Of a stretch of DNA of 64,000 bases, positions 1 through 57,293 are shown one piece after another. The notes beneath the pieces are model-generated. The model searched no databases, had not been told where the DNA came from, and worked only from the letters and a program-made list of their open reading frames with translations. The position numbers and the translations under genes were made by a program. Numbering within the stretch: the stretch's first letter is position 1; each line of letters starts with the position of its first letter. This stretch comes from Candidatus Altimarinota bacterium (GTDB lineage Bacteria; Patescibacteriota; Gracilibacteria; Absconditabacterales; Absconditicoccaceae): the NCBI GenBank assembly GCA_021734475.1, contig JAIPIU010000003.1, positions 1-64,000 of the forward strand. The letters run 5' to 3'.

Positions 1-1092
1 TCAGATTGAACAGCTTCATGAACAACATGAGTCTTTATAGAATGACTAAGCGGTAAAGTGTGAGCAAATCGATTTTGTGATAAAAATCTTACTAATTGTA
101 AAAAAATAGATTCAATAGTTACTACATGAGAATTGACTTTATATCTAACTGGTTCTGCTTTAGTTCCATATGTAATGGATGATGAAATAAATACTTTAGC
201 AACATCTAGTCTTACATGTACAAACTGACAAATACCAAAATCAAATTGATCTACTCGATCTTGTCAAGCAGATACAGATACAGATAAATATTTTTCAACA
301 GCAAGTTTCAATACATCAAACTGAATAGTTACACTATCTTGAGCTTGATGACAAAGCAATGTAACTCTTAGTTTAGAATGAAGATATAGAACTGGTAGTG
401 ATATAATAAAAACAGATACTAATTGAGCTTCAGTTTTAAACTGAAATATATGATTATGAATAACTTCTGATTCTTCAGATAGAATAACAATAGCAGGTGA
501 TATGTGATTATATTGAAATATTATAAATATTTACAACAAATTTTTATGATGAAGTTTATTTATAAAATGATGAGACTGAACAAGTGTTATTGGAGTTTGA
601 TGAGAAGGTGTGGATACTGCATGATGAAACATATACATAGTATGATGATAATGAGTTACATGATGAAATGTAATACTAGCTCACAATTCAACAACTACAA
701 TAGGTAGAGTATGAATATGAGACGCTACTCCATCTTATTTATTAGATGTAAATTGAACATGACGTTTTATAAACGCAGTATATTGAGCAGCTTTCTATTA
801 TAATTCAGATATTAGATACAAAGAAAATTTAGAATTAATTCAAAATCCATTAGATAAAATATTATCATTAAATGGTTATACATTCAATTGGAAAAATTGA
901 TGATGAGAAGATATTTGAGTAATAGCACAAGAAATTGAAAAAATATTTCCACAAGCAGTATCTACCAAAGAAGATTGATATAAGGCTGTAGAATACTGAC
1001 ATTTAGTTGCTCCACTTATAGAGGCTATCAAAGAACTAAATCAAAAAATCGAAACACAACAAAAAGAAATAGATATATTAAAATCTAAATAA
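1..1092 (+). pseudogene. Tail-fibre/surface protein with S74 chaperone domain, interrupted by TAA (5' end outside window)
   Basis: The frame is open from the window edge to TAA at 1090 when TGA is Gly, except for one TAA at 649-651. The upstream part is rich in Gly, Ser, Thr and Asn, like beta-structured fibre stalks. The C-terminal ~100 residues match the peptidase S74 (intramolecular chaperone of endosialidase) domain: NSDIRYKENLELI with the expected Ser-Asp and Lys, then LNGYTFNWK, DIGVIAQEIEKIFPQAV, and a C-terminal coiled coil (IEAIKELNQKIETQQKEI). In the family this domain trimerises the stalk and cleaves itself off. The TAA lies in a run of TGA codons (IVGG-stop-GVTGGN), so TGA to TAA is the simplest origin. 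It could be a true nonsense mutation or a sequencing error. Frame and domain calls are firm; the function (adhesin or phage-derived fibre) is inferred. Confidence 0.75.
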
Positions 1093-1111: not shown

Positions 1112-1534
1112 ATGAAAAAATTATTTTTACCAATATTATTATTAACTTTAGTTATTTGATTTGTTGTATATGCACTTCCTCCCATAGTACAACGAAGCAA
1201 TTGAAAAAGTTATTATAAAATATGAACATGAACTTCAGCTTGAACTATAAGTTGATTTTCAACAAATTCCAATAATAGATGTAGAGTTATAAATACATCT
1301 AATGCTAATTATGAAATTTTTATACCAAGATCTACCTGAGAACGAGATTCTTTTTTATCAAATATACCATCAAATATATATTTATGAAACTGACAACCAA
1401 TATGCTGAAATCCACTTATAGATTTATGTGTGGAATGAACCGAACAATTCTATACATGTTGATGAAGTTCTCATACACGACAATGTGTTTGAGAATGTGC
1501 CACTATAAATTGTTCTTATAGCTGACCTTGTTAG
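1112..1534 (+). CDS. Small secreted cysteine-rich protein
   Basis: A 140-residue protein starting 20 bp after the S74 gene, probably in the same transcript. The N-terminus MKKLFLPILLLTLVIGFVVYA is a signal peptide or membrane anchor. The mature part is rich in Ser, Thr, Asn and Gly, and its C-terminal third carries about nine cysteines (CGNP, DLC, TCGG, QCVGECATINC, GPC), suggesting disulfides outside the cell. It contains many TGA-Gly codons and ends in TAG. No family recognised. Its position suggests a partner of the fibre-like surface protein. Confidence 0.65.
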
Positions 1535-1538
1535 CATA

Positions 1539-4049
1539 CTAATCAATTCACCAATTAATATCGCTATCTTCAACCCATTCAATATTTTTTGTCTTAGACA
1601 CACCGACTAGATCGTCGCTGTGTTTTTTTATAATATCTAAATAATCGTTTGGTCATTTTACTATCAATTTTTCTAATTCTGCTCACATAGAAATTTGTTT
1701 CTCTGTTTTATATTTTCTTACATATTCTACTATCTCCAAAAATTTATCAAAATCAGATTTTATTGCATCTTTATTATCAAATTCTGGATAATCTTTTATT
1801 TCAGGATAATTCGCTATATTTACAGATTCTATTCATTCAAACTGCTTAAAATAATTCTGATAAATTTCTTCTGTAACATGAGGCATATATGGGGCAATTA
1901 ATCTAATCACAGCATAGTATACTTGATACAAAGTATATTGAGCAGCTTTCTTTTTTTCTTCTCCATTTTCAAATAATTCTGGTTTATACAACCTCACTTT
2001 CACCATCTCTAAATAGTTATCACAAAAATCTTTCCAGAAAAAATCCTCAAAATGTATCTTAGCTAAACCATATTCATATTTATCCAAATAATTTCTCATA
2101 GTCGTAATAGTCTCTTGTAATCTAACTAATATCCATTCATCAGTCGGAAGCAACTGTCATTCCGGCGCTTGTCCTTTGCGAAGTCAAAGGGTTATTTTTG
2201 TTGCAGCCGGAATCTTATATCATTCCAATTGCATCTTCACAAAAGCAAAAGCATTCCAAAGTTTAGTAACAAGTTTCTGTCAGTTTTTTAATTCATTTTC
2301 ATCAAAAAATGTATCTTTTCCCAATTGTAGTCCAAGAGCCCAATATCTAACAGCATCAGCTCATCGAGTCTCTATCAATGATTCAGGATCAAATTTAGCA
2401 TTTCATTTGGATTTACTTATTTTTTCTCATTTTGCAGCCAATAGAAATCATGATACCATAATATCTTCAAATGGTTTCTGTCCATCTCTAAAATATGTAT
2501 GTAATGTCGTATAAAGCAACCACGTACGTATAATATCATGTGATTGAGGTCTCAGATTTATAGGTAATATATTTTGTTTATATCCATCTCTTTCAAGAAA
2601 TTTTTGGTTAATATACGGAGTCAATCATGATGTAAACCATGTGTCAAAAATCAAAGTTTCTGGTCTAATTTGGTCTGCTGTATATCCATCAGGCAAATCT
2701 ACACTAGGATCTATCATACCTCTAGACAATTGTTCTTCGCTAGGCAATATCACATTATCATCTTGATCATATCGTACAGGAATAGGTATTCAGAATTTTC
2801 TTGATCTTGAAATATTCCAATCTCGTTGAAGATTTTCTATCCAGTCATTAGATCTCTTTTTCATAAATCATGGAAACCATCTCATTTTTTCGTTTTGAGC
2901 TAATAAGATTTCTTTTTTATCAAGTAAATTTACAAACCATTGTTTGATAGGAATTATTTCAACAGGCACTTTTCATCTCTCAGAAATCTGCTTTGACTGA
3001 GTTATAGGATCTCTCTTGACTACTATATCTCATTTAGATTCAAATATTTCCATAATTTTTACTCTCGCGTCTTTTATTTTCATTCCATCTATTTCTGGCA
3101 CACCAGAATCTTTCATTCTTCCATATCTATCTATCACTACTTTTTCTCATAGATTATGCTTATTAATCCAAAAAACATCTACTTCATCACCATAACTACA
3201 ACACATTACTACTCATGTTCATTTATCCATTTTCACCTTATCGTCAGCCAATAAGGGCACAGTTACTCATATAGGAGTTGTGATTTTTCTTCAAATATAT
3301 TTTTGAAATCTTTCATCATCAGGATGTACAAATACCGCCAAACATGCAGGTAAAAGTTCTGGTCTAGTAGTTGCTATTACAAGATTATCTCAATCTTTTT
3401 TAGCTGTCATTCCGGCCTCAAGTTTTGCAGCCGGAATCTTATCATCAACAATAGTAAAATTCAAATAATTAAAATATTCTTCAAATTCCTGTTCTTCTGT
3501 TTCAGCTTGAGCTACTGTTGTTTGCATCTTGGTACATCGTAGAGCTGGAAAATCTTTACATACAATTTGTCATTCTTTGTATAATTTTACAAATGTACTC
3601 TGAGATATTTTTTGAACTTCAGGAGAAATAGTAGTGTAAAATCTAGTTCGATCAACAGATATTCCCAAAGATCTCCAAAGATTTTCATACAAAACTTTAT
3701 ATTTATCTACTACTTCCAAGCATTTATTTATAAAATCCTTGCGTTCTACATCTTTGATATTTATACCCAATTCTCTTTCTACCAACTGTTCTGTGGGTAT
3801 ACCATTATTATCATATCACATCGGATAAAAAACATTGTATCCAGACATCCTTTTGTATCTAGCTATTACCTCAGCTTGAGAATAAGAAAAAATATGTCAT
3901 ATATGTATTTTTCATGACACTGTAGGTGGTGGTGTGTCTATACTATATATAGGTAAACTTTCGTCATTTTTAAATTTATAAGTCTGATTTTCATCTCGAT
4001 ATTTTTGCCATTTCAGCTCAACTTCTCTTGGATTATATTTGTTTCACAT
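1539..4049 (-). CDS. valS: Valyl-tRNA synthetase with two in-frame repeat insertions
   Basis: Class I aminoacyl-tRNA synthetase that charges tRNA-Val; 836 residues, a compact ValRS. Visible motifs are [16 protein letters not shown] (HIGH), the editing-domain stretch [36 protein letters not shown], and GEKISKSKGN (KMSKS-type). The anticodon-binding helical end closes with [13 protein letters not shown]. Many Gly are TGA. Start chosen at [14 protein letters not shown]; an upstream ATG would add ten residues of no family character. Two segments do not belong to the family: [13 protein letters not shown] (3405-3440) and [19 protein letters not shown] (2157-2218). Both are translations of the palindromic ATTCCGGC...GCCGGAAT repeat and both keep the frame open. 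The last codons run to a TAG just beyond the TAG of the converging secreted-protein gene. Confidence 0.93.
2157..2218. repeat. Palindromic repeat element inside valS (copy a)
   Basis: Terminal inverted repeat TCATTCCGGC ... GCCGGAATC encloses a second hairpin, CCTTTG-cgaagt-CAAAGG. It is much more GC-rich than the surrounding gene. The core from GCGCTTGTCC to AAAGGGT is identical to the intergenic copy at 9598. Read on the minus strand it adds about 20 residues to ValRS without a stop. Confidence 0.85.
3405..3440. repeat. Palindromic repeat element inside valS (copy b, minimal)
   Basis: TGTCATTCCGGC-ctcaagttttgca-GCCGGAATCTT. It has the same ends as the other copies but lacks the inner hairpin. 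It adds about 12 residues in frame to ValRS just before the conserved [10 protein letters not shown] stretch of the editing domain. Confidence 0.8.
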
Positions 4050-4211
4050 TATCAAATTTCTAAATTGAATAAAAAACATTAAACGTACAAACGCAAAACT
4101 ACTTATATATTTCAACATTTCTATTTCAAGAAATATTTTTTACTTATTAACTAATAGAAAGACTTAAGTTTTCATACAGCTGCAAATAATTCATACATAA
4201 CAATACTAATA

Positions 4212-4951: not shown

Positions 4952-6046
4952 ATGAAAATAAAAAATGAACAAGACAAATACATTGATCTTCATGATCTGA
5001 TGATTGAAAAATGAGCATCAGATCTATATTTAACCTATTGAGAACATCCTACACTGAGAATAAATAACCAATTATTCAAAGTAGATCAATTACCACAAAT
5101 GGATGATGATATGTTGAATGAAATCAGATCAAATTTGGTTAAACCTGAATATGCAGAATATTTTACCAAAAATTTAAGTTTAGATAGATGAATATCACAC
5201 AATTGAAGACGTTTTAGGATAAACATATCCAAACAACAATGACATATTATGGTAGTATCTAGATTATTAATGGATACTCCTCCAAGTATAGATGAACTAT
5301 GATTACCTCCAATTTTCAAGGAATTAGCATCCAAAACTAGTTGAATAATATTGATAGCTTGACCTACTTGATCATGAAAATCTACAACATTAGCATCTAT
5401 CCTACAAGAAATAAACACAAATTATTCTAAACATATCATAACTATAGAAGATCCTATAGAATATAAATTCAAACCAGCAAAATCTATAATAGAACAAAAA
5501 GAATTATGAAAAGATATAGTATCATTTTCATGATCATTGAAATATACACTTAGACAAAGACCTGATGTGATTTTATTTGGTGAAATTAGAGATTTAGACG
5601 GAATCAGAAATGCTTTATTATTAGCTGAAACATGACATCTTTTATTAGCTTCTATACATGCTAGATCATCTATACAGACTATAAATAAGATAATCTGATC
5701 CTTTCCCTCCGAGCAACAAAATCAGATTAGAACACAGTTATCAGAAAATCTGATAGCTATAGTATCGCAAAAATTATTAAGAACAAAAAACAATAAATCA
5801 ATGTTCGCAGTACAAGAAATTATGATAAACAATACAGCCGTATCAAATATAATTAGAGAAAATAAAATGAATATGCTAAACAATACAATTTCAACCAACA
5901 AAAAATACTGAATGCAACTATTGGAAGAAGAATTAATAGACCTTGTAGCTTGAGATAAAATAAATATAAGTGAAGCGATAGATAATGCTAACGATCCAAT
6001 CTATCTACAAAAAGAACTTATAAACAGAGGAATATTAAAAAACTAA
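4952..6046 (+). CDS. pilT: PilT/PilB-family type IV pilus ATPase
   Basis: 364 residues, the usual length of PilT. The N-terminal domain carries GASDLYLTYGEHPTLRINN, typical of PilT/GspE N-domains. The Walker A motif GPTGSGKST lies around residue 137 with its glycines mostly TGA. The Asp box is followed by Walker B RPDVILFGEIRD, then the His box ETGHLLLASIHA. The C-terminal part matches retraction ATPases. It probably powers retraction of the pilus encoded at 53010-58212. An N-terminal ATG preceded by AT-rich sequence without a Shine-Dalgarno motif is usual here. It is followed 4 bp later by comF, so the two are cotranscribed; pilus retraction and ComF both serve DNA uptake in other bacteria. 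Confidence 0.9.
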
Positions 6047-56054: not shown

Positions 56055-56669
56055 ATGAAAAAAAACTGATTTACAATATTGGAAATACTTATAATAATAG
56101 CTGTTTTTAGTATTTGAATTATGGCTGTTTTTTATCTAATCACAAATAATTTAGAAAGATTAGATGAAATAAGAACAAGAAATACAGCAACGTTTTTGGC
56201 AAAAGAAGGGATTGAATTGGTTTTCAATGCCAGAGATGCTAATTTACAAAAAGAGCTCAGACGAAACTGTGTTTTTACAGATAAATATATCAATGATCCT
56301 AGTATATACTGAGAAGAAAAATTTTGTGATTGATTTTTTTCTTCATGAATTAATACAAAATTTTTGCAAATAAATAATAATCCTAGAAAATATCCTGAAT
56401 TAACACGAACAAATTCTTGATCTTTTGAAAACAATATACTATATTCTCACATAGAAGACATAAATTGAAATAAAATTTTTCGATACAATCATGATTCATT
56501 ATGATGAGAAAAAACGAATTTTGCAAGATATATAAGTTTTGATAGTATAAAAGAATGATGAAATATTTTACCAATAGATAAAATAATAAAAATACAATCT
56601 CATGTTATCTTCCAAAAATGAAGCAAAACTTGAGAAGTCTTTTTAGAAAGTTTTATAGGAGATTACTAA
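56055..56669 (+). CDS. Type IV pilin-like protein 2
   Basis: 204 residues, prepilin site MKKNGFTILEILIIIAVFSIG with Glu +5; short leader of five residues. The helical stem continues to RTRNTATFLAKEGIELVFNARD, a pattern shared with PilV/PulG minor pilins (LAxEGxExxxNxR). Cys pair NCVFTD ... FCDG. 3 bp before the next pilin gene. Confidence 0.85.
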
Positions 56670-56672
56670 AAA

Positions 56673-57293
56673 ATGAAAAAAAACTGATTTACTTTAGTAG
56701 AGATACTTGTCGTATTGATTGTAATATGAATTTTATCTGTTGTTTTGATGAAAACATATACATTTATTTCTCAGATAGCATTTAGGATACAACAAGAAAA
56801 ATATATAAATAAAGAAATCTTGTTTATTTCACAAAATATTCAAAATTTTTCAGATAGAAATAGTATAGATTATTATAGATATGGATCAAGTTTAGACTCA
56901 AGCTATGGTATCACAGATACACTATATCTAAGCTGACAAGACTGAGAGTTAACAATATATAGCACATGAGACTGTATAGATCCATGAGAATCTATAGATA
57001 TTTTAACATGATGATATAAATGCTATCTAGAAATAATAAAAAACTGAAATACAATCCAAATAAGTAACCCCAATTCAATATATCTATCCAAAACAATATT
57101 CAAGATCATACCATACGATTCGACAGAAAATTATTTAAATACAAATTCATGTTCAAATTATATATCTTGTATATACAAACCATGATTTTTTATGATTAGT
57201 AGAGCTTATTCGCCTAGATATAATAATAATCGATATAATAAAATCCAAATACCAATACAACAATTTTTTAATTCAATCAATATAAATGAATAA
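56673..57293 (+). CDS. Type IV pilin-like protein 3
   Basis: 206 residues, prepilin site MKKNGFTLVEILVVLIVIG. The globular domain has Cys in STGDCIDPG, GYKCYLE, NSCSNYISCIYKPG. Its stop overlaps the next start by 8 bp, so translation is coupled. Probably a minor pilin of the PilW/PulJ group, by order only. Confidence 0.82.

What the first reader, a model, noticed from the sequence alone, without database searches (positions are those of the whole stretch)
643..663. TAA within a TGA-Gly run: decay route special to this code
The S74 protein reads ...IVGG-TAA-GVTGG... with flanking TGA codons. One G-to-A change turns TGA (Gly) to TAA (stop). In this code every Gly codon of this type is one transition from a stop, so glycine-rich fibre genes should be fragile. 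If the stop is real, the chaperone domain may be made separately or the gene may be switched off in part of the population.
Basis: partly seen in the sequence, partly recalled or inferred. Interest (0 to 1): 0.55.

Follow-up and report, generated by a model that had tools for sequence, protein, structure and literature searches.

The report
Single nonsense break in surface fibre
A cell-surface fibre gene of a bacterium that reads TGA as glycine is cut short by one TAA stop just before its folding-helper domain; this looks like an ordinary recent gene break, not a decay route special to this genetic code.

Summary
Confirmed: TAA at 649-651 lies in frame between 216 open codons and 146 codons that hold an undamaged Peptidase_S74 chaperone domain. 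Among stops of the window with 50 open codons on each side it has the highest two-sided coding score.

The gene starts on the preceding contig, which shares 80 bases with the window start. Gene order in a same-genus genome supports the join; there a superoxide dismutase gene and valS are neighbours and the fibre gene is absent. So this is an accessory bacterial fibre with a hydrophobic N-terminus.

No ATG, GTG or TTG follows in frame, so separate translation of the S74 part is unlikely. The residue at this place varies and is rarely glycine in fibre-like relatives; TGA as ancestor gets 0.23-0.48 in a rough model. Stop-gain risk exceeds that of a standard-code version of this gene only above a transition/transversion rate ratio of about 2. 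Of 26 related fibre ORFs, 24 could be read to their stop, with 847 TGA codons; none shows a cut-off fibre remainder behind its stop.

Best reading: a recent nonsense mutation in a dispensable fibre gene. Without reads, a strain mixture or consensus error stays open.

The parts
1..80 (+). 80 bases identical to the last 80 bases of contig C7 (C7:62364-62443); the gene continues upstream there (start at C7:62199, 55 more codons with a hydrophobic N-terminal segment, by my reading)
   Evidence: join supported by the reading frame and by gene order in G001
1..648 (+). fibre gene, proximal part in the window: glycine-rich repeat protein, 30 TGA codons read as Gly
   Evidence: no Pfam match up to E 1
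649..651 (+). in-frame TAA that cuts the fibre before the chaperone domain
652..1092 (+). distal part: end of the repeat, Peptidase_S74 chaperone domain and C-terminal stretch, 146 codons and TAA
   Evidence: PDB 6f45_A E 1.6e-7
805..822 (+). S-D-I-R-Y-K motif of S74 (Ser 805-807, Asp 808-810, Lys 820-822)
   Evidence: conserved 23/24, 21/24 and 23/24 in an alignment of this protein with 23 sequences from relatives
574..606 (+). sister repeats in the same protein with GG-x-G, x = GAC (574-576) and GAA (604-606)
   Evidence: codon listing; position 574 also
1112..1534 (+). small ORF, 140 aa, probable signal peptide and Cys-rich end (by my reading); no family match above cut-off; not seen at the G001 junction
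1539..4118 (-). valS, valine--tRNA ligase; right border of the accessory segment
   Evidence: NCBIfam TIGR00422 668.5 bits against cut-off 612.1

Best explanation
This is an accessory surface-fibre gene of a code-25 bacterium, present between a superoxide dismutase gene and valS in this genome and absent at that place in a same-genus genome. It has taken one nonsense substitution. Translation should end after 271 residues, before the last repeat and before the S74 domain, which in known fibres folds the trimer and then cuts itself off. The fibre would then be unfolded, degraded or short, so the gene is most likely a recent pseudogene or null allele. Shown: position, frame, undamaged distal part, accessory status, no in-frame ATG/GTG/TTG, uninterrupted relatives. 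Inferred: surface location, loss of function, recency, and that the consensus base is real.
For: In-frame TAA with coding-like sequence on both sides, the highest-scoring case in the window. The RF-1 domain model finds two places in a 96.7% complete assembly, RF1 and an ArfB-like protein, and no RF2. TAA ends 41 of 51 genes. No ATG/GTG/TTG in frame after it. Distal S74 domain undamaged, with its Ser, Asp and Lys, which points to a recent lesion. The gene is absent at the matching junction of G001, and no S74 match was found in the two same-genus assemblies, 81% and 87% complete. It is the only S74 match in its own genome, while two other ORFs there that share its N-terminal module (C2, 343 aa; C3, 648 aa, a weak match) are not interrupted. 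Removal of the S74 domain after folding: PMC4690869 (passages).
Against: No reads, so a consensus error or strain mixture is not excluded; the contig break lies in the same gene. The undamaged distal part is also what a working gene would show. Most fibres with this N-terminal module show no S74 domain (21 of 24 read to a stop), so a shorter product could work.
Confidence: 0.68

Rival explanations
1. The stop is not fixed: it is a consensus error, or the allele of one strain in a mixed population, and other cells carry an open gene.
For: The window starts at a contig end; C7 and C8 share exactly 80 bases inside this gene, so the assembler met a fork or lost support here. The assembly has 3.06% estimated contamination. 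A published Gracilibacterium draft also broke in a hypervariable repeat gene (PMC6851277, abstract and passages).
Against: The break is about 570 bases before the TAA, not at it. Other contig ends of this assembly overlap too (45, 131 and 139 bases), so overlaps are not special to this gene. No other interruption scores as high in 64 kb, so the consensus is not generally poor.
Confidence: 0.17
2. The shortened 271-residue product is a working fibre without S74, and the distal 146 codons are a leftover.
For: ORFs with the same N-terminal module but no S74 domain detected are the majority: 21 of 24 read to a stop (one of the 21, L246, ends in an S74-like helix by eye), among them the own-genome ORFs on C2 and C3.
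Against: Several of those end in a Cys-rich segment of their own (such as CFCNGT or CYCNN), which the shortened product lacks (read by eye). The stop falls inside the repeat, with coding quality unchanged across it.
Confidence: 0.1
3. Programmed recoding: ribosomes read through UAA or hop from the Gly UGA before it to the Gly UGA after it, giving a small amount of chaperone-bearing fibre that could help the shorter chains to fold.
For: Identical TGA codons stand directly before and after the stop, as in a take-off/landing pair; the distal part is undamaged.
Against: RNA folding around the stop is ordinary: z -1.30, 15 of 200 shuffles fold at least as well. None of the 24 related ORFs read to a stop shows such a case. 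TGA on both sides is not rare here: 7 of 361 codons.
Confidence: 0.03

Closest known systems
S74 / intramolecular chaperone fibres (phage T5 pb1, K1F endosialidase, GA-1 neck appendage)
   Same: C-terminal S74 domain with the Ser-Asp...Lys motif after a repeat fibre.
   Different: Bacterial chromosomal gene with a hydrophobic N-terminus, and the chaperone is cut off from the fibre by a stop codon.
Ordinary nonsense pseudogenes of accessory surface genes
   Same: One in-frame stop, gene absent from a near relative, paralogues present.
   Different: Read with TGA as glycine, so the TGA-to-TAA route exists; whether it was used here is not shown.
Code-25 Gracilibacteria/Absconditabacteria genes (PMC6851277, PMC8629427; passages)
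   Same: TGA as Gly, low GC, RF1 without detected RF2.
   Different: Nothing seen here at code level beyond what those passages describe.
Published argument on codons near stops and stop reassignment (Johnson et al. 2011, PMC3161013; abstract and passages)
   Same: Treats codons one step from a stop as prone to nonsense mutation.

Membership tests
Peptidase_S74 (PF13884) chaperone domain | profile match over the curated cut-off | tested here: met
   64 bits against 22, E 1.6e-17
Peptidase_S74 (PF13884) chaperone domain | Ser/Asp and Lys of the motif | tested here: met
   S52, D53, K57 of P0001; 23/24, 21/24, 23/24 in the alignment. That Ser starts the cleavage is from PMC4690869; the role of Lys is recalled
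Peptidase_S74 (PF13884) chaperone domain | joined in one chain to the fibre it folds | tested here: not met
   TAA at 649-651 separates them as assembled
Peptidase_S74 (PF13884) chaperone domain | trimer formation and self-cleavage | not testable with these tools
   needs expression
Nonsense pseudogene | in-frame stop inside a frame that is open in relatives | tested here: met
   no cut-off remainder behind the stop of 24 related fibre ORFs
Nonsense pseudogene | further lesions or relaxed coding quality | tested here: not met
   no other stop in frame; distal coding score 0.319; fits a recent lesion
Nonsense pseudogene | no function left | not testable with these tools
   needs proteomics or a knockout
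Separately translated chaperone | start codon in frame before the S74 domain | tested here: not met
   no ATG, GTG or TTG in frame after the TAA to 1089; only ATA, ATT, ATC
Programmed readthrough or bypass | stimulating RNA structure or conserved stop context | tested here: inconclusive
   z -1.30; no such case among 24 related ORFs
Code 25 | RF2 absent, RF1 present | tested here: met
   two RF-1 domain places: prfA over its cut-off, and an ArfB-like protein just over its cut-off (100.5 against 100 bits)
Code 25 | tRNA-Gly with anticodon UCA | not tested
   no tRNA in the window; rest of the genome not scanned

The most novel reading that the evidence does not exclude
The stop is a programmed one: ribosomes hop from the Gly UGA before UAA to the Gly UGA after it (or read through), so that only a few chains carry the S74 chaperone and these seed the folding of the shorter chains. 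In a code where UGA is the main glycine codon, TGA-stop-TGA could serve as a ready take-off and landing pair.
Probability: 0.03. Interest if true: 0.7.

Novelty: new member of a known kind. Interest (0 to 1): 0.2.

Why it matters
On its own it matters little: one accessory fibre gene appears broken. The useful part is a first test of the fragility idea. Transition routes to stop rise when TGA is the main glycine codon, transversion routes fall, and the related TGA-rich fibre genes examined are uninterrupted. It also shows that the window begins inside a gene and that this fibre belongs to a multi-copy bacterial family.

Tried and rejected
Phage tail fibre: rejected. The gene sits between housekeeping genes, has a hydrophobic N-terminus, and its N-terminal module recurs in 17 of 49 genomes of the family. 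S74 matches in 1,416 phage records show only that the domain is shared.

Two genes rather than one broken gene: rejected, because no ATG, GTG or TTG follows the TAA in frame and matches to relatives run across it.

TAA reassigned: rejected, since it ends 41 of 51 genes.

Finding the same locus elsewhere: the 75-residue piece with X at the stop gave no phage match; an exact DNA pattern around the site gave none in viral contigs; a second degenerate pattern gave none. The first degenerate pattern gave 92 stretches. My first reading took in only 85 of them, with 86 matches, 14 fibre-like; the full reading gave 93 matches, 15 fibre-like by a simple rule, Gly in 1 of 15 and in 32 of 93. Two of the 15 repeat others.

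Limits of the counts: the ancestor model uses a typed list of 18 residues (own repeats, and 10 of the 14: two repeats, one M and one I were left out), pseudocounts and partly assumed codon shares. The five viral records with Gly by gapped alignment (L070 to L074) were left out as ambiguous; including them would raise TGA. The 26 fibre ORFs come from 18 stretches that I chose among the 43 matches; two run off their contig and one holds a run of N. The S74 test was BLAST with this domain only. Behind the stops (900 bases, three frames) matches to fibres began at the N-terminus of a neighbouring fibre ORF in eight of nine cases; the ninth (L247, 31% over 135 residues) follows an ORF that already ends in S74. 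A fibre cut long ago, with its remainder gone, would not be seen. Tandem repeats: none.

Full report
What is there. The window is bases 1-64000 of contig C8 of a 1.17 Mb, 8-contig assembly. Frame 1 under code 25 is open from base 1 to TAA at 649-651 and again from 652 to TAA at 1090-1092. The distal 146 codons hold a Peptidase_S74 domain (PF13884, E 1.6e-17) that also matches a solved long tail fibre distal subunit (6f45_A, E 1.6e-7). The Ser, Asp and Lys of its motif are conserved in an alignment with 23 sequences from relatives (23/24, 21/24, 23/24).

The gene is longer than the window. The last 80 bases of contig C7 equal window bases 1-80. On C7 the frame goes back to a start at C7:62199, with a hydrophobic N-terminus. 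In the same-genus genome G001, valS is followed after 159 bases by a superoxide dismutase gene and then by the same genes as on C7 (names by NCBIfam, where the dismutase scores 227.5 bits against a family cut-off of 348). This supports the C7-C8 join and shows that the fibre gene and the small ORF at 1112-1534 are absent there. Neither G001 nor G002 has an S74 match, but they are 81% and 87% complete and the junction in G002 was not resolved. The N-terminal module occurs in 17 of 49 genomes of the family, often in several copies. This is a bacterial fibre family, not a phage tail gene.

Is the stop more than chance? Stops with 50 open codons on each side were scored with a codon model trained on 27 window genes. 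The TAA at 649 has the highest two-sided score (0.27 and 0.32). The next (0.20 and 0.16) lies between the ORFs 56055-56669 and 56673-57293, an ordinary boundary; the third (0.11 and 0.16) is antisense to the ORF 4952-6046; 15 more are weakly positive on both sides. So this is the one clear interruption that this scan finds in 64 kb; frameshifts were not sought. TAA is a normal terminator here (41 of 51 genes). RF1 and an ArfB-like protein were found and RF2 was not.

Did it come from TGA? The place is the x of a GG-x-G repeat. In the same protein the sister repeats have GAC and GAA there. Five sites in four relatives matched by a strict pattern have N, T, P, I and K. Of 15 fibre-like viral matches one has Gly (32 of all 93 matches have Gly, mostly outside fibre context). 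A gapped alignment puts Gly there in five near-identical viral records. With this gene's codon use alone, TGA as the ancestor gets 0.34-0.70 for rate ratios 1 to 8; with the residue profile 0.23-0.48 (rough). TGA remains the likeliest single codon, but it is not shown.

Is the code fragile? In the window's 51 predicted genes, 767 of 1,140 glycines are TGA. This fibre has 54 transition and 96 transversion routes to a stop, 44 of the 150 being TGA to TAA. Re-encoded for the standard code it would have 15 and 179. The own code is worse only above a transition/transversion rate ratio of 2.1 for this gene and 5.3 for the window's predicted genes. As a field test, 26 related fibre ORFs were found by their N-terminal module alone, so broken ones would have been found too. 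24 could be read to a stop and hold 847 TGA codons. In the 900 bases behind those stops, in three frames, BLAST found fibre-like sequence in nine cases: in eight it begins at the N-terminus of a neighbouring fibre ORF; in the ninth (L247) it follows an ORF that already ends in S74. No cut-off remainder was seen, so these genes are not seen to decay often. The same TGA-to-TAA step exists in other codes that read TGA as sense (recalled: Mycoplasma, as Trp). A published screen remarks, on yeasts, that in-frame stops in pseudogenes mostly arise by transitions from certain codons (PMC8629427, passage). Johnson et al. argue that fewer stop codons mean fewer truncations (PMC3161013, abstract and passages). 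Among the titles listed by my searches (20 of 205, 8 of 8, 10 of 18) I saw none on TGA-to-TAA decay in code 25; most were seen only as listings.

How it most likely works. The S74 domain in known fibres serves folding of the trimer and is then removed by self-cleavage (PMC4690869, passages). With the stop, the chain would end after 271 residues without it. No ATG, GTG or TTG follows in frame, so a separate chaperone is unlikely. The likeliest state is a null allele or young pseudogene of a dispensable gene; the undamaged distal part suggests that the lesion is recent. A strain mixture or consensus error cannot be excluded, as the assembly breaks inside this gene. A working short fibre is possible, since 21 of 24 relatives read to a stop showed no S74 domain. 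Recoding has little support.

Side result. In an alignment of valS, CGA codons of this genome and of G001 and G004 stand at several places where another of the three has Trp TGG, while AGA never does (own CGA opposite W 5 and R 9 of 24 aligned residues, the R themselves partly CGA, one gene). This fits the published reassignment of CGA and CGG to Trp in Absconditabacteria (PMC8629427, passage) and suggests that plain code 25 is not the full code of this genome. It does not change the stop.

Noticed in passing
window 1539-4118 (-) and G001:C3, G004:C9 (L103, L104): CGA codons stand where near relatives have Trp (TGG) in valS, so CGA (and perhaps CGG) seems to mean Trp here, as published for Absconditabacteria; plain code 25 would give wrong residues.
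   Followed up: partly
window 1-80; C7:62364-62443: The window begins at a contig start inside the fibre gene, and the previous contig overlaps it by exactly 80 bases.
   Followed up: yes
G000:C2:30626-30823, G000:C3:260999-261178, G015:C7, G032:C9, G040:C5, G047:C1: A multi-copy family of fibres shares this N-terminal module but has different C-termini (S74, Cys-rich, others), in some genomes in tandem clusters.
   Followed up: partly
window 1112-1534 (+): Small probable secreted Cys-rich protein next to the fibre, without a family match above cut-off, not seen at the G001 junction.
   Followed up: partly
contig ends C1, C2, C3, C5, C6 of G000: Several contig ends share overlaps (45, 131, 139 bases), and the C3 and C5 starts share sequence, pointing to repeats at the breaks.
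   Followed up: no
window 56055-57293 (+): Two ORFs of 204 and 206 aa lie back to back in the same frame; perhaps a tandem duplication.
   Followed up: no
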